Below are positions 9,651 to 47,148 of a DNA stretch of 64,000 nucleotides, in pieces. Every line of letters begins with the position of its first letter. Positions within the stretch are counted from its first letter, which is position 1. Source of the stretch: Paludibacteraceae bacterium (GTDB lineage: Bacteria; Bacteroidota; Bacteroidia; Bacteroidales; Paludibacteraceae). Below the pieces are notes generated by a model. The model did no database searches. It was not told the DNA's origin and saw nothing but the letters and a program-made list of their open reading frames with translations. Location: positions 1 through 64,000 of the forward strand of contig JAGPGD010000004.1 in the NCBI GenBank assembly GCA_018056165.1. The letters are read 5' to 3'. Made by a program: the position numbers and the translations under genes.

Positions 9651-11111
9651 CTATATTTGTTTACGAAGTCGGGCAACTGGAATATTGAGTTGATCTCTGT
9701 ATTTTGCCACCGTTCTTCGAGCAATATTATAACCTTTTTCTTTCAATACTTCTACTAATTTTTCGTCATTCAACGGTTTGCTTTTATCTTCATTTTCAAT
9801 ACATTCCAAGAGAATTTTCTTTATTTCACGTGTTGAAATTTCTTCTCCAGATTCGTTGGTCATCGATTCAGAAAAAAAATATTTTATTGGAAAAATCCCG
9901 AAATCGGTTTGAATATATTTGCTGTTGCTAACACGTGAAATGGTTGAAATATCATATCCTGTGCGTTCAGCAATATCTTTGAGAATCATAGGCTTTAAGT
10001 ATCTTTCATCTCCTTCAATAAAAAAATCTTTCTGATATTCCACAATTGCCGACATGGTTGTCAATAATGTTTGTTGACGCTGCTTAACAGCATCAATAAA
10101 CCATCGAGCAGAATCAATTTTTTGCTTTACAAACATCAAAGCTTCTTTCATTTGAGGAGTCTGATTCCGTTTGTTTGCCATATAATCCTGAAACATTGAA
10201 TTGTACGTACTATTAATCCGTAACTCAGGAATATTGCTATTGTTTAAATGCACATAAAGGTCCCCATCCTTGTTTTCCAGAATAAAATCAGGCACTACTG
10301 TAGTCATGGATTTCTCTAGCACACTACCGCTCCAGGCACTTCCAGGCTTCGGATTAAGTTTTATTATTTCATTCATTGCCTTTTTTAGCTTTTCCTCATC
10401 AATTTCCAGCCCTTTGATTAATTTTTCAAAATGTTTTCTTGTGAATTCTTCAAAATACTCTTTTACAATACGTTTGGCAATCTCAATTTCAGGCGTAAAA
10501 GGTTTACGTTCTAACTGAAGCAGCAAACATTCTTGTAAATCGTAAGCTCCCACCCCTGGAGGATCAAGCTGCTGAATGATTTTGATAATTTTCCTGATTT
10601 CTCCTTCATTTGTTTCAATATTCAACTGAAAAGCCAAATCATCAATAAGTGCTTCAGTCTTTCTACGTAAATATCCTTCTTCATCTATATTTCCTATAAT
10701 AAATTCGGCAATAATTTTTTCTTTCTCTGTAAGAGGAATTAGGTTCAATTGATCCATCAAATAATCATGAAAAGTCATGCCCGCAGAAAAAGGAATTTCC
10801 TCATATTTGTCATCTTTTGAAGTATTATTAATTCTAAGTTTATAATCAGGAATTTCATCTTCATCAAGATATTCTTCAAAATCAATCTCATCATTGACTT
10901 CCTCATCAATTTTTTCTTCTTCAAAATCGTCAGAAAGTTCTTCTTTTTCGAGCTCGGGTTCCGGACTTTCCTCCAGAACTGGATTTTCTTCCAATTCCTG
11001 GCGTATTCGTTCTTCTAACTCTAAAGTAGTCACTTCGAGCAGTTTTATCTCTTGAATTTGGGCAGGCGAAAGTTTCTGTTGTAATTTTTGTTGTAATTGT
11101 TGTTTTAACAT
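9651..11111 (-). CDS. rpoN: RNA polymerase sigma-54 factor
   Basis: The alternative sigma factor that needs AAA+ activators. The order is: Gln/Leu-rich activator-interaction region (residues 1-45), a very acidic linker (about 50-100), the core-binding domain (about 110-310), a helix-turn-helix (ERTGYDISTISRVSNSKYIQT) and the C-terminal RpoN box (ARRTVAKYR). I place the start at the ATG at 11111 (MLKQQLQQKL, 486 aa). The upstream in-frame start at 11138 overlaps the TATCTTTG promoter box and so could not be in the message. A matching NtrC-type activator is encoded at 61.6-62.7 kb. Confidence 0.96.
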   Translation of the reverse strand: MLKQQLQQKLQQKLSPAQIQEIKLLEVTTLELEERIRQELEENPVLEESPEPELEKEELSDDFEEEKIDEEVNDEIDFEEYLDEDEIPDYKLRINNTSKDDKYEEIPFSAGMTFHDYLMDQLNLIPLTEKEKIIAEFIIGNIDEEGYLRRKTEALIDDLAFQLNIETNEGEIRKIIKIIQQLDPPGVGAYDLQECLLLQLERKPFTPEIEIAKRIVKEYFEEFTRKHFEKLIKGLEIDEEKLKKAMNEIIKLNPKPGSAWSGSVLEKSMTTVVPDFILENKDGDLYVHLNNSNIPELRINSTYNSMFQDYMANKRNQTPQMKEALMFVKQKIDSARWFIDAVKQRQQTLLTTMSAIVEYQKDFFIEGDERYLKPMILKDIAERTGYDISTISRVSNSKYIQTDFGIFPIKYFFSESMTNESGEEISTREIKKILLECIENEDKSKPLNDEKLVEVLKEKGYNIARRTVAKYRDQLNIPVARLRKQI

Positions 11112-11135
11112 CAGTAAAATAATAAGTATTTTATG

Positions 11136-11143
11136 CAAAGATA
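11136..11143 (-). promoter_or_regulatory. -7 box before rpoN
   Basis: On the minus strand this reads TATCTTTG. No well-spaced TTG is visible at -33. Its position argues for the rpoN start codon at 11111 rather than 11138. Confidence 0.45.
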
Positions 11144-11380
11144 AAAGTTTTTTGCAAATAAGTTTATTACATAAACATTTGTGAAAGTTAAAATATCTGA
11201 TATTTTTTTAATTTCTAAATCATTTTGGGAATTTGAAATAGCTTTTGAAATTAATTTTTTTAATCCACGAAAAAACATACTTTTTGAAATTTTAATGATT
11301 TATTCAAATAATATTATGAGAACATTTTGTTACTTTGCATCAGAAAAAAATGATTTTCAAAATCTTTCTAAATTAATTAA

Positions 11381-12670
<1,290 letters not shown>

Positions 12671-36414: not shown

Positions 36415-36653
36415 TATTCACATTTTCAAATTGAGTTTTTCAAATTTCTTATTTATTCCTCTTTAATTTTATAAACTCAAAACTTCAAAAATCATTACTA
36501 CTCTTGACTAATTATTTTTAGCGACGCAAAGCCATTGCAAATATAAATAAAATATCTAATGAAATGTTATTAACTTAAAAATAAATGATTTATAAACAAT
36601 TGATTATCAAACAAAATAAACAAATTTATTTTGTTTATTTTAATTTTTTCTAA

Positions 36654-36696
36654 TGGATAACCCCGAGATAAGCCTCGAGGAATTCTTTTGATTAAA
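36654..36696 (+). repeat. 43-bp palindromic repeat, copy C
   Basis: The core CCCCGAGATAAGCCTCGAGG lies at 36661-36680, preceded by TGGATAA and followed by AATTCTTTTGATTAAA. It is related to the second hairpin of the 142-bp repeats. It lies in the 376-base gap between the DUF4465 gene and wzx, which otherwise shows only AT-rich sequence. Confidence 0.9.
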
Positions 36697-36790
36697 ACAA
36701 TAAAAAAATTGCAGAGAGTGAAATTTCCCTGCAAAAATCATAAAACATTATAGGTAAACTAATTAAGTAAATTCACCTTTCTAAAAAATT

Positions 36791-37534
36791 TTATTCTTCA
36801 TTATTTAGACTTTTCTCAAACTGTAAATTATCTATACAAACATATTTGGGAGTATTAACGCCAAAAGCTCCCTTGTCGCTCGAATCGAAAAAGAAACTTA
36901 ACTGGTCAATTTTACCTAATGTGCTTATATTTAATTCATTCCATTTATTAGAAATAAAATTTTTGCCATTGCGAAAATCTGCCAGAAAATATTCTACACG
37001 TGCTGTTTCGTGCCCTTTCCAGTATCCTTTAATCATTACTTTAAACCAATCTCCTGCAGCAAATTTCTTGCTGAAAGCAGAACCATTTTTCATATCCCAA
37101 TAAGAATAAGTAGTGTTGGTCAGCATAATGCTTTTGGCAGAATAAGTTGCCAGTTCATTTTCAGGAATCAATATTGTTGCAGAATCGTCATAAGCAATTG
37201 CAAACTGATGAGAACCAAAAGCTCCACTTCCGGCTATAGTACTGTATTGATTTGCATAACCTTGTGTAATTGTATCATTCATGGCAGAACAAGCAAAACC
37301 ACTCCAGAAATCGCCCCATTCACTGGAGAAAGTGTTTTTAAAACGAAAACCATTGGCTAAAAATTCTCCTTCCCCCTCAGAACCATTCCAGTAATTTCCA
37401 TTTCCTAACTGAACGTCTTCAAAATCTACCAACACATTTGTTGTCTCAATTGGATCATCTTTCTGACAGGAAGAAAAAATAAAAGACATTCCTAAAGCAA
37501 ATAAAAACCATTTACATTTTTTCATTTTTTTCAT
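36791..37534 (-). CDS. DUF4465 lipoprotein under a cobalamin riboswitch
   Basis: A 247-residue lipoprotein of the DUF4465 family. The signal peptide ends at a lipobox (IFSSC), so it is membrane-anchored and probably surface-exposed. Typical family features are VDFEDVQLG at the start of the mature protein, WSGFACS, GSGAFGSHQFAIAY and a final YVCIDNLQFEK. A cobalamin riboswitch lies about 145 bases upstream, which ties the protein to vitamin B12 acquisition. From memory, DUF4465-type lipoproteins of gut Bacteroidota include B12-binding proteins (BtuH). No BtuB-type receptor is adjacent. The start at 37534 is favoured over 37570; 37525 is also possible. Confidence 0.85.
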   Translation of the reverse strand: MKKMKKCKWFLFALGMSFIFSSCQKDDPIETTNVLVDFEDVQLGNGNYWNGSEGEGEFLANGFRFKNTFSSEWGDFWSGFACSAMNDTITQGYANQYSTIAGSGAFGSHQFAIAYDDSATILIPENELATYSAKSIMLTNTTYSYWDMKNGSAFSKKFAAGDWFKVMIKGYWKGHETARVEYFLADFRNGKNFISNKWNELNISTLGKIDQLSFFFDSSDKGAFGVNTPKYVCIDNLQFEKSLNNEE

Positions 37535-37678
37535 TTTTTTAAAGTTTATAATATTAAAGAAATAGTTCACCGAACTTTTCTGCTCAGTAAAAAGAGAATA
37601 AAGAAACGAAAAGGAAGAATGAAAAAGAAAAGTTCAAACTTCTTTTGCTGTTTATTCCCGAAAGCAAAAAGTAATAGA

Positions 37679-37865
37679 AAAATTGGCAGGTCTTCTGACT
37701 TACTCCTGTTGAACGCCTTCCCAAGTTTCATTTTCTAAAATGAAAGACTCAGTGGCAAAGTATAGTTCAACACATTAATAGAGTTCACAGCAGCGGGTAC
37801 TGTTCCAGCTTTTCACTGGATTCCCTTTTATTTACATTCAAGAAAAGAATATAAATACCAATTTT
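37679..37865 (-). promoter_or_regulatory. cobalamin (AdoCbl) riboswitch
   Basis: On the minus strand the conserved blocks appear in order: AAAAGGGAATCCAGTGAAAA, CTGGAACAGTACCCGCTGCTGTGA, shown here as two short parts, then GCCACTG, GGGAAGGCG and finally AGAAGACCTGCC (the B12 box region). The closing helix P1 pairs AAAATTGG (5' end) with CCAATTTT (3' end). It lies upstream of the DUF4465 lipoprotein gene only. A short A/T-rich stem followed by U-rich sequence at about 37621-37650 may be the expression platform. Confidence 0.93.
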
Positions 37866-37872
37866 CTTTGTG

Positions 37873-37880
37873 CAAAAGTA
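37873..37880 (-). promoter_or_regulatory. probable -7 box of the riboswitch transcript
   Basis: The minus strand reads TACTTTTG here, about 7 bases before the first pairing base of the riboswitch, as expected for its transcription start. No TTG is visible at -33. Confidence 0.5.
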
Positions 37881-37909: not shown

Positions 37910-38554
37910 TTAAAACTGATAGAGTAAAGTAACGAACCAGCCTTTCTGGTGCAAACTTCCGGGTGACGATTTTTTTAAATTAATTAAGCCGAAATCATAT
38001 CCGCTTTTAAGCTGATATTTTTTCCATTGGAATCCACCGCCTGCACCAAATTGTAAATTAAACCTATGCAACATATTGTCCTTATAAAGTTCCTTGTGAG
38101 TGGTCCCTTGTGGAATTCCTGTCATTGAACTTAATTTATCAGTAAGTTTGGCAACAATTGTTTGTGGTTGAGATAAACCAATATTGAAGGTAGGACCCGC
38201 ATAAAGAAAGAAATTTACTTTTTTTATAAATGGGTAAGTAAAAGTTACGTGAACAGGAATATTGATAGAATGAATCGAAGTTTTGTATGTTACAGAGTCT
38301 TCGTGAGGATATAATTGAAGTTTATTAGAATATAGATAAGAATAAAGAGTACCTATTTCGCCTGTAAAATGTTCTCTAATATCAAAGCTGGTAACTACTC
38401 CTACCTGAAAACCATCAAAATAAGTAGCACTCATCTGCTTACCACTTTGAAGTTGTTGCACATACCCGCCTTCAATTTTATATGTTTGAGCTTGAGCCGA
38501 ATAAGAAAATAAAAATAAAGCAATAAAAAGAATTGTCCTCGAAGCTGTTTTCAT
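37910..38554 (-). CDS. outer-membrane beta-barrel family protein
   Basis: A 214-residue protein with a signal peptide (residues 1-22, ending YSAQAQ). Alternating-residue strands are ended by aromatic residues, and the final strand GWFVTLLYQF ends in Phe as in outer-membrane barrels. It resembles the generic PorT-like or OmpA-beta-barrel families of Bacteroidota, but I cannot name a function. It stands alone, 44 bases before the riboswitch start on the same strand. Confidence 0.75.
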   Translation of the reverse strand: MKTASRTILFIALFLFSYSAQAQTYKIEGGYVQQLQSGKQMSATYFDGFQVGVVTSFDIREHFTGEIGTLYSYLYSNKLQLYPHEDSVTYKTSIHSINIPVHVTFTYPFIKKVNFFLYAGPTFNIGLSQPQTIVAKLTDKLSSMTGIPQGTTHKELYKDNMLHRFNLQFGAGGGFQWKKYQLKSGYDFGLINLKKSSPGSLHQKGWFVTLLYQF

Positions 38555-38795
38555 TTGTTCTTTGATAAAAATTTAAAAGCAAAGATATAATTTTTTAACT
38601 AAACAAATAATGTCTCCCTGAATTGAATCCTTCATCTTTTACTTGTTTTTAACGAAAAACATTTGATTGTTAATATATTTTTAGTGACAAAAACTATTCT
38701 ACAAAAATTTAAAACTTTAGAAAAATAACAAGATAAATTCAAGTAATTAATACCATTTATAAGAAGAGCAATAGTCCGTTAGGAAAAAATTAAGA

Positions 38796-39425
38796 TTAAG
38801 CAGCTTTAATACCGAAATACAGAAGTTCTTTGACAAGGTGGTGACTTTTTAGGGCTTTAGGTTTTACACCGAAAGCCTCAATAAATCGATTCAACATAAA
38901 AGCATTGTGATACAACAGTTTATAGTTGGCAATAGAGAAAGGTTGTCCTGCGTTCTTTTTATCGCACAGGTGTATAATCTTTGCAATATTGACCGTTGTA
39001 AGTGATGCGTTAAAGTGAAAATAGAGTTTGTCCAAATCTCTTGCCTGAGAATGATTCAATCCGGTAGCCTGTTTGGCATCTCTGAAATTGAATTCCATTT
39101 GAAAACGACAGTGATAATACGCTAAAACCTCAAGAACATTCATCCTGGTATCGGTGGAGAATATCAGACGTTGTATTGTTTTTCCGTTTTCCTCCGTTTT
39201 TCGTTCGACAACCAATAAAATGTCTGTTTTCAAAGATTTGGAGTTGACAACGGCATAAAAAGCCTGAGTGTTGTCATTAATTTGAATTTGAGTAAAAACA
39301 TTCATATCCAAATTTTCAAGGTCAATTTTTCCTGCCAGTTTGGTTGGTCTGCCTTTACCAGAGTACTCACCCGTAAATTTATAGCGGATTTTCCCTTCCA
39401 AATTTTGTAAAAAATGATCTAAAAG
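38796..39425 (-). pseudogene. IS4-family transposase, C-terminal remnant
   Basis: About 200 residues of a DDE transposase. The IS4 signature Y-2-R-3-E-6-K is exact (YHCRFQMEFNFRDAK), and an Asp in LIFSTDT upstream fits the second catalytic Asp. The N-terminal half with the first Asp is missing. Reading upstream, the frame meets a TAG at 39426-39428 within sequence that looks like transposase coding (LKADWY-stop-LLDHFLQNLEGK). It is therefore a decayed, inactive copy. The C terminus seems natural. Confidence 0.88.
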
Positions 39426-39463
39426 CTAATACCAATCGGCTTTTAAGAATATTCCAGTAAATT
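39386..39463 (+). repeat. 78-bp IS remnant, copy 1
   Basis: This stretch is the broken 5' side of the transposase remnant. It closely matches 40203-40280 in the same orientation, differing at scattered positions (for example around TGTAAAAA and CCAATCGGC/CCAATCAGC). Confidence 0.75.
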
Positions 39464-39505
39464 TAATGTACGCAAGAAAAATACTATTTTTTTCTTCTAA
39501 CAAGG

Positions 39506-40132
39506 ATGATAAATGCCATTGATAGGAGTTCAGCAAAAGGGAAAAGAGATTATCTGGTTTTACTTCTAGCGGCAGAATATGGGTGGCGTGCCTCTGATAT
39601 TACTTCGTTTAGTCTTGAACAGATTGACTGGGATAAGAATAACATCTCAAGGGTTCAACAAAAAACCAATATTGCTGTTGAGTTCCCCTTATTAGCATCT
39701 GTAGGGAACGCCGTCATAGACTATATCAAACATGGCAGGCCGGTAGGAGGAGATAACGTTATAATAGTCAACCATGGGAATGCTCAAAAGGGGAAGAAGT
39801 TGACTTCTCCGACTATACATTCTATAGTCTCCAAAGCAATGCAGACAGCAAACATCCAAAATTGGAAAATAAAGCAACATGGTCCTCATTCATTACGTCA
39901 CAGCCTGGCAACTAATATGCTCAAACATAATGTTGCCATACCGATTATCAGCACAGTTCTTGGTCATCAGAGTACAGAAACCACCAAAATCTATATAAGT
40001 GTCGATATAGAAAAATTGCGCCTTTGTAGTCTTCCTATTCCAAAGCTGAGTAGTCCTTATTTTAACCTTAAAACAAAACCTGAGTATGGAAAGTCTATGA
40101 CTTTGTTTCCTTATCTAAATATTATATTTTAA
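39506..40132 (+). pseudogene. tyrosine recombinase/integrase, catalytic-domain fragment
   Basis: A 208-residue product containing only the catalytic domain of a phage-type integrase. The residues R-H-R-H-Y are present: Arg in GWRASDITS, His-x2-Arg in HSLRHS, His in LGHQS and the nucleophile Tyr in TTKIYISVD. The N-terminal SAM-like DNA-binding domain is missing: the frame begins at MINAIDRSSAKGKRDY, which lies inside the usual protein. The active centre is complete but the protein is probably non-functional. It sits between two copies of an IS remnant. Confidence 0.82.
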
Positions 40133-40202
40133 AATGCAACTTGGTATAAAAAATTAAACAGTGAACAATATAGTTAAATGCTTCATTATTGGGAGTTAAA
40201 AA

Positions 40203-40280
40203 GGATTTTCCTTTTCAAATTTTGTAAAAACTGATCTAAAAACAATACCAATCAGCTTTTAAGAACATTTTTTAGTAAAT
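40203..40280 (+). repeat. 78-bp IS remnant, copy 2
   Basis: Direct repeat of 39386-39463, separated by the integrase fragment. Sequence similarity stops at both ends, so only a small piece of the same insertion-sequence type is left here. The rest of the 40133-40442 gap shows nothing recognisable. Confidence 0.75.
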
Positions 40281-42632: not shown

Positions 42633-42713
42633 TTTCATTATGTTTTAAAAACAACAAAATATTTGAATCAGCTTTAGTTTTTTAGACTTTTGCTGAATTT
42701 ATTGTGTAATGAA

Positions 42714-42756
42714 TGAATAACCCCGAGGCAAGCTTCGAGGAATTCTTTTGATTAAA
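42714..42756 (+). repeat. 43-bp palindromic repeat, copy D
   Basis: Core CCCCGAGGCAAGCTTCGAGG at 42721-42740, preceded by TGAATAA and followed by AATTCTTTTGATTAAA. It lies between the convergent thrS and rseP genes. Confidence 0.92.
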
Positions 42757-42789
42757 AAATAGAAATTGTAACAGATTTCTTATAAACTT

Positions 42790-46469: not shown

Positions 46470-46660
46470 TCAATGATTACTGAATACAAAATGCTTTACA
46501 AAATTAGCATATTTCGAAAGAAAATAAAAATCAAGAAGTTCAAAGTGTTTTTTAAATTGAACTCCTTGATAAAAAAATGAAAAAATAATTTTGTTTTTAC
46601 TATAGCTGAAAAGTATTACACTACTTTTCTTTATCGTATTTTTTGATAAACTCTTTTTAA

Positions 46661-47148
<488 letters not shown>

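What the first reader, a model, noticed from the sequence alone, without database searches (positions are those of the whole stretch)
37525..37880. Cobalamin riboswitch driving a lone DUF4465 lipoprotein
A full B12-class aptamer, including the closing P1 helix, lies upstream of one lipoprotein gene with no BtuB receptor, BtuG-like propeller or corrinoid enzyme nearby. This ties a DUF4465 protein to B12 by regulation alone, inside a repeat-bounded segment, and suggests a mobile B12-scavenging accessory gene.
Basis: partly seen in the sequence, partly recalled or inferred. Interest (0 to 1): 0.6.

Follow-up and report, generated by a model that had tools for sequence, protein, structure and literature searches.

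The report
B12 riboswitch controlling B12-binding lipoprotein
A bacterium of the Paludibacteraceae carries an ordinary vitamin-B12-sensing RNA switch in front of a single gene for a lipoprotein of a family recently shown to bind B12; the rest of its B12 uptake machinery lies elsewhere in the genome, so this is one piece of a known scavenging system, not a mobile oddity.

Summary
A full class-I cobalamin riboswitch (RF00174, 97.5 bits, E 4.2e-23, minus strand 37877-37668) has a closing P1 helix supported by covariation, and it precedes one DUF4465 lipoprotein gene (37525-36791). No btuB, btuG or btuCD homologue lies on the contig. The gene appears to be a single-gene unit: a conserved Bacteroidetes -7 promoter motif lies directly before the aptamer and an intrinsic-terminator-like hairpin follows the gene. 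All four H-bonding residues shared by BtuJ1 and BtuJ2 are identical here. The mobile-accessory-gene reading is not supported. The gene is not orphaned: the genome's only other cobalamin riboswitch drives a BtuB1-type receptor, and single BtuG, BtuC, BtuD and BtuF-like genes lie elsewhere. Two congeneric genomes show the same two-riboswitch split. Of the 80 best relatives, 69 have the riboswitch core directly upstream; of 49 with at least 5 kb on both sides, 27 have it without btuB, btuG or btuC within 5 kb. The flanking repeats are unrelated dispersed elements. Verdict: new member of a known kind, low interest.

The parts
37873..37880 (-). Bacteroidetes-type -7 promoter motif TACTTTTG (TAnnTTTG); no clear -33 motif
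   Evidence: Sequence; same motif at the aptamer 5' end in 54 of 59 related riboswitches and in alignment A2; consensus quoted in PMC7366714
37668..37877 (-). Class-I cobalamin riboswitch aptamer, complete, with P1
   Evidence: RF00174 97.5 bits, E 4.2e-23; P1 covariation
37640..37672 (-). Conserved hairpin CTTTTTGCTTTCGGGAATAAACAGCAAAAG at the end of and just after the aptamer; role unknown (expression platform or L13-like); limits approximate
   Evidence: TTGCTTTCGGGA with at most 2 mismatches in 67 of 89 related riboswitches, 0.5% of shuffled tails
37566..37591 (-). Terminator-like hairpin TTTACTGAGCAGAAAAGTTCGGTGAA in the leader, candidate expression platform (not conserved in relatives by eye)
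   Evidence: weak
36791..37525 (-). DUF4465 (BtuJ-family) surface lipoprotein, 244 aa; alternative in-frame ATG at 37534
   Evidence: PF14717 E 7e-46; PDB 9hmu, 4jqr, 9fct, 9i2l matches; lipobox FSSC then QKDDP
36709..36734 (-). Intrinsic-terminator-like hairpin after the gene (TTGCAGGGAAATTTCACTCTCTGCAA TTTTTTTATT)

Best explanation
This is a B12-repressible single-gene unit of a dispersed B12 uptake regulon. When intracellular adenosylcobalamin (or a related cobamide) is low, the mRNA starting at the TAnnTTTG promoter is expressed and makes a DUF4465/BtuJ-type lipoprotein that is lipidated, carried to the cell surface (and perhaps to outer-membrane vesicles), and captures B12 with an augmented beta-jellyroll. 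It passes the vitamin on, directly or not, to the riboswitch-controlled BtuB1-type receptor encoded elsewhere (with BtuG, and a single BtuC, BtuD and BtuF-like set), to supply methionine synthase and methylmalonyl-CoA mutase. When cobamide is plentiful the aptamer closes and expression falls. Shown here: aptamer, gene identity, conserved binding residues, the other genome parts, conservation of the arrangement. Inferred: that it represses, the mode of repression (termination or translation), surface location, B12 binding by this protein, and hand-over to BtuB/BtuG.
For: RF00174 hit and P1 covariation. DUF4465 by Pfam; solved relatives 9fct (BtuJ1), 9i2l and 9hmu. BtuJ1 H-bond residues Y146, N241, T242, Y245 align with identical residues here: the first Tyr of TNTTYSY and the N, T and Y of VNTPKY. 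DUF4465 proteins bind B12, eight tested. CQKDDP matches the optimal surface signal C-X-K-(D/E)2-X. The only other riboswitch in the genome lies directly before a receptor matching BtuB1 8blw_A at E 1.5e-219; a BtuG1-like lipoprotein matches 8blw_B at E 8e-104; one FecCD permease plus ATPase and one periplasmic binding protein. MetH and methylmalonyl-CoA mutase are present. Congeners G001 and G002 also have one riboswitch on DUF4465 and one on BtuB. 69 of 80 best relatives have the riboswitch core directly upstream.
Against: No expression, binding or localisation data for this organism. The expression platform is not resolved: leader hairpins differ between relatives. BtuC, BtuD and BtuF-like were assigned by family and by being the only copies found, and no riboswitch lies by them, so they might serve another ligand. 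The pattern used to collect relatives required NTPxY, so conservation of that motif cannot be judged from that set. The genome is a 94.7%-complete draft, so further B12 genes may be missing.
Confidence: 0.88

Rival explanations
1. A mobile B12-scavenging accessory gene, moved as a repeat-bounded segment independent of host B12 uptake.
For: An IS fragment and an about 125-nt repeat lie to the right and a 46-nt repeat to the left; the gene sits at a different chromosomal place than in G001/G002; relatives show it at several places.
Against: The repeats are different families, each dispersed in the genome, and do not pair as ends of an element. The best homologues are the two congeners at about 60% identity, then other Paludibacteraceae. 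The upstream outer-membrane-protein gene also occurs about 3.2 kb from DUF4465 in L030 and L062, which suggests an old neighbourhood. No integrase or transposase was noticed next to the unit in congeners.
Confidence: 0.07
2. The protein is a B12-regulated lipoprotein whose main job is not uptake into its own cell, for example vesicle-borne capture of B12 as a public good or for denying competitors.
For: In B. thetaiotaomicron the BtuJ proteins are enriched on vesicles and deliver B12 from them; the gene is away from btuB in this genus.
Against: Same riboswitch class as the cell's own btuB, and a complete-looking uptake set in the genome; vesicle-bound B12 in B. theta is still taken up by cells.
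Confidence: 0.2
3. The riboswitch is a decayed relic without function on this gene.
For: No regulatory test; expression platform unresolved.
Against: All core motifs intact, 97.5 bits, covarying P1, conserved promoter and leader hairpin, same arrangement in the genus.
Confidence: 0.03

Closest known systems
BtuJ1/BtuJ2 (BT_1491, BT_1957) of Bacteroides thetaiotaomicron, DUF4465/IPR027828 (PMC12751083; PDB 9FCT, 9I2L)
   Same: Same domain family, lipoprotein, control by cobalamin riboswitch, same four H-bonding residues
   Different: BtuJ1/2 sit inside B12 uptake operons with btuB and others; here the gene is alone with its own riboswitch
D5EK51 of Coraliomargarita akajimensis (PDB 9HMU; PMC13398666)
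   Same: Closest solved relative by sequence (E 5.9e-25); B12 bound in the crystal
   Different: Other phylum; its gene context was not examined here
BtuB1-BtuG1 complex of B. thetaiotaomicron (PDB 8BLW; PMC10404256)
   Same: The genome's riboswitch-driven receptor and its propeller lipoprotein match BtuB1 and BtuG1
   Different: In B. theta btuG is always next to btuB; here btuB and btuG are on different contigs and the BtuG (361 aa) lacks the fused BtuH domain
RF00174 cobalamin riboswitch, E. coli btuB type
   Same: Complete cobalamin aptamer
   Different: Controls a lone binding lipoprotein instead of btuB

Membership tests
RF00174 cobalamin riboswitch | Score above gathering cut-off over the full model | tested here: met
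   97.5 bits against 31.5, positions 1-189
RF00174 cobalamin riboswitch | Closing P1 helix | tested here: met
   8 bp, 6 pairs with changes on both sides in 12 relatives
RF00174 cobalamin riboswitch | Ligand-dependent structure and gene control | not testable with these tools
   Needs in-line probing or reporter assay
DUF4465 / BtuJ (PF14717, IPR027828) | Profile match above curated cut-off | tested here: met
   157 bits against 25
DUF4465 / BtuJ (PF14717, IPR027828) | HI-loop NTPxY and DE-helix Tyr that H-bond the corrin | tested here: met
   VNTPKY and TNTTY aligned to 9fct N241/T242/Y245 and Y146
DUF4465 / BtuJ (PF14717, IPR027828) | Lipoprotein signal with surface-export motif | tested here: met
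   FSSC lipobox, then QKDDP, consensus from PMC5080379; the location itself is not tested
DUF4465 / BtuJ (PF14717, IPR027828) | Binds B12 | not testable with these tools
   Shown for eight family members in PMC13398666, not for this one
Bacteroides B12 uptake operon | DUF4465 gene in one operon with btuB/btuG/btuCD | tested here: not met
   No homologue in the window or rest of contig; parts elsewhere in the genome
Mobile genetic element cargo | Paired element ends or linked mobility genes | tested here: not met
   Unrelated dispersed repeats on the two sides; congeners carry the unit between housekeeping genes

The most novel reading that the evidence does not exclude
Across Bacteroidales outside the gut Bacteroides, the stand-alone riboswitch-DUF4465 unit is the common form, and it acts as an independent, separately tunable B12 capture module (possibly vesicle-borne) that feeds receptors encoded elsewhere, with its own conserved post-aptamer hairpin as part of the expression platform.
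Probability: 0.3. Interest if true: 0.4.

Novelty: new member of a known kind. Interest (0 to 1): 0.22.

Why it matters
It shows that the B12 link of DUF4465 proteins, now established biochemically, is mirrored by direct riboswitch control in most relatives of this gene, also where no receptor gene is near. That gives a simple rule for finding B12 capture proteins outside btuB operons, and suggests that these bacteria regulate the outer-surface parts of their uptake system. It is incremental, not surprising.

Tried and rejected
Mobile segment: repeats on the two sides do not match each other and are dispersed. Orphan regulation without receptor: rejected, a BtuB1-type receptor with its own riboswitch was found. 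Co-transcription with the upstream outer-membrane barrel gene (37910-38554): less likely, because a promoter motif lies between it and the aptamer; not excluded. L5-L13 pairing with the conserved TTGCTTTCGGGA hairpin: looked at by eye, L5 varies while the hairpin loop does not, so no covariation support. Ancestral neighbourhood via DUF4290: this gene was not found in the genome. Structure prediction was not run, since solved relatives at E 6e-25 already give the fold.

Full report
WHAT WAS CHECKED. The Rfam scan of the whole window gives a single hit, the cobalamin riboswitch RF00174, on the minus strand at 37877-37668, over the full model, 97.5 bits, E 4.2e-23. On an alignment of 12 riboswitches from this genome and relatives (ten directly upstream of DUF4465 genes, two upstream of btuB, one of those in a btuB-btuG-DUF4465 operon), 6 of 8 P1 pairs change on both sides, 80% of cells pair, and no shuffle or slid control reaches the observed covariation score. 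A Bacteroidetes -7 promoter motif TACTTTTG lies at the 5' edge of the aptamer, and the same motif is upstream of 54 of 59 related riboswitches in which it could be looked for. The consensus TAnnTTTG is quoted in PMC7366714. An intrinsic-terminator-like hairpin with a T-run follows the gene at 36734-36709. So the unit looks monocistronic, although no transcript data exist.

THE PROTEIN. The ORF is DUF4465 (PF14717, 157 bits). The start is ATG 37525 or 37534; relatives align with 37525. It has the lipobox FSSC, and the mature N-terminus CQKDDP fits the optimal surface-export signal C-X-K-(D/E)2-X defined in PMC5080379. It matches solved DUF4465 structures, among them BtuJ1 9fct, BtuJ2 9i2l and D5EK51 9hmu. 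The four residues that H-bond cobalamin in both BtuJ1 and BtuJ2 (Tyr146, Asn241, Thr242, Tyr245 in BtuJ1) align with identical residues here (TNTTY and VNTPKY). B12 binding has been published for eight DUF4465 proteins (PMC13398666) and subnanomolar affinity for BtuJ1 (PMC12751083).

THE REST OF THE GENOME. No homologue of the BtuB, BtuG, BtuC or BtuD queries lies in the window or on the rest of the contig. The genome (2.02 Mb, 94.7% complete) has exactly one further cobalamin riboswitch. It lies directly upstream of a TonB-dependent receptor (riboswitch L004:10036-10258, gene 10299-12383) whose best solved relative is BtuB1 of B. thetaiotaomicron, 8blw_A, E 1.5e-219. A BtuG1-like lipoprotein (8blw_B, E 8e-104) stands alone on another contig. 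One FecCD permease with an ATPase beside it and one periplasmic-binding-protein gene were found; the permease and the binding protein are the only matches of their families. MetH and methylmalonyl-CoA mutase are present. The B12 uptake system is thus complete in outline but scattered, with riboswitches on the receptor and on the DUF4465 lipoprotein. In B. theta, by contrast, btuG is always next to btuB (PMC10404256).

RELATIVES. The two congeneric genomes carry the same riboswitch-DUF4465 unit (about 60% protein identity), alone between ubiE-like and DUF4290-like genes (names from sequence by eye, except DUF4290, which was then sought as a family), and each has a second riboswitch upstream of a BtuB. 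Among the 80 best relatives in GTDB contigs, 69 have the riboswitch core directly upstream (the core pattern recovered all 13 Rfam-confirmed cases used as control and found nothing in the locus where Rfam found none). Of 49 with at least 5 kb on both sides, 27 have the riboswitch and no BtuB, BtuG or BtuC homologue within 5 kb, 11 have it with BtuB or BtuG, 4 have it with a BtuC-type permease, and 7 lack it. These counts depend on phmmer thresholds (above 40 bits for BtuB/BtuG, above 80 for BtuC) and on a collection pattern that required NTPxY. The lone arrangement is therefore ordinary in this order.

MOBILITY. The left repeat (46 nt, 36652-36697) has about 30 other copies across the genome and the right side has an IS fragment (38769-39386, longer copies 96-99% identical) and an about 125-nt repeat with several other copies. 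They are unrelated to each other. The upstream outer-membrane barrel gene has relatives about 3.2 kb from DUF4465 in L030 and L062, which hints at an old neighbourhood. The chromosomal place does differ between this species and its congeners, so rearrangement is real, but nothing marks the unit as cargo of a mobile element. Threonyl-tRNA synthetase identity to the congener G002 is 85%; the lower value for DUF4465 is what one would expect of a fast-evolving surface protein. A formal gene tree was not made.

MECHANISM. Most likely: low cobamide permits expression, the lipoprotein is exported to the surface and captures B12, which reaches BtuB/BtuG and the ABC transporter; high cobamide closes the aptamer and lowers expression. 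The way of closing (termination or translation) is open. A hairpin with the motif GCTTTCGGGA follows the aptamer in 67 of 89 relatives and may be part of the platform; it shows no covariation with L5 by eye.

NOVELTY. Riboswitch class, protein family, ligand, and control of DUF4465 genes by cobalamin riboswitches (in operons) are known. New here is only the lone-gene arrangement in this genus and how common it is in Bacteroidales; a term search of PMC13398666 found no description of it.

Noticed in passing
window 36652-36697, 42712-42757, 46659-46704: A 46-nt dispersed repeat (AATGAATAACCCCGAGGCAAGCCTCGAGGAATTCTTTTGATTAAAA), about 30 copies in the genome, mostly between genes where looked at; function unknown.
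   Followed up: partly
window 39379-40269: A 208-aa tyrosine-recombinase fragment (39506-40132) lies between two direct copies of a repeat (39379-39453 and 40196-40269); a longer form of the repeat (about 125 nt) occurs at several other places.
   Followed up: partly
window 38769-39386: Truncated DDE_Tnp_1 insertion sequence with 96-99% identical longer copies on other contigs, several cut at contig ends.
   Followed up: partly
window about 37640-37672 and relatives: Hairpin with TTGCTTTCGGGA just after the aptamer in 67 of 89 Bacteroidales cobalamin riboswitches (0.5% in shuffles), not found behind the btuB riboswitch of this genome.
   Followed up: partly
L030 6951-9526 and L062: In these relatives the riboswitch-DUF4465 gene is followed on the same strand by nrdD (anaerobic, B12-independent ribonucleotide reductase; family-checked in L030 only) and, in L030, a likely nrdG, possibly under the same B12 control.
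   Followed up: no
L099, L103, L110, L114, L124, L128, L130, L132 and others: A gene of about 345 aa starts within about 30 nt of the end of DUF4465 in nine of ten relatives that have it nearby; its L099 copy has a type IX secretion C-terminal signal (Por_Secre_tail) and no other known domain.
   Followed up: no
L166 4175-5260: BtuG1-like propeller lipoprotein on its own, away from btuB and without riboswitch, unlike the fixed btuB-btuG pairing in B. theta.
   Followed up: partly
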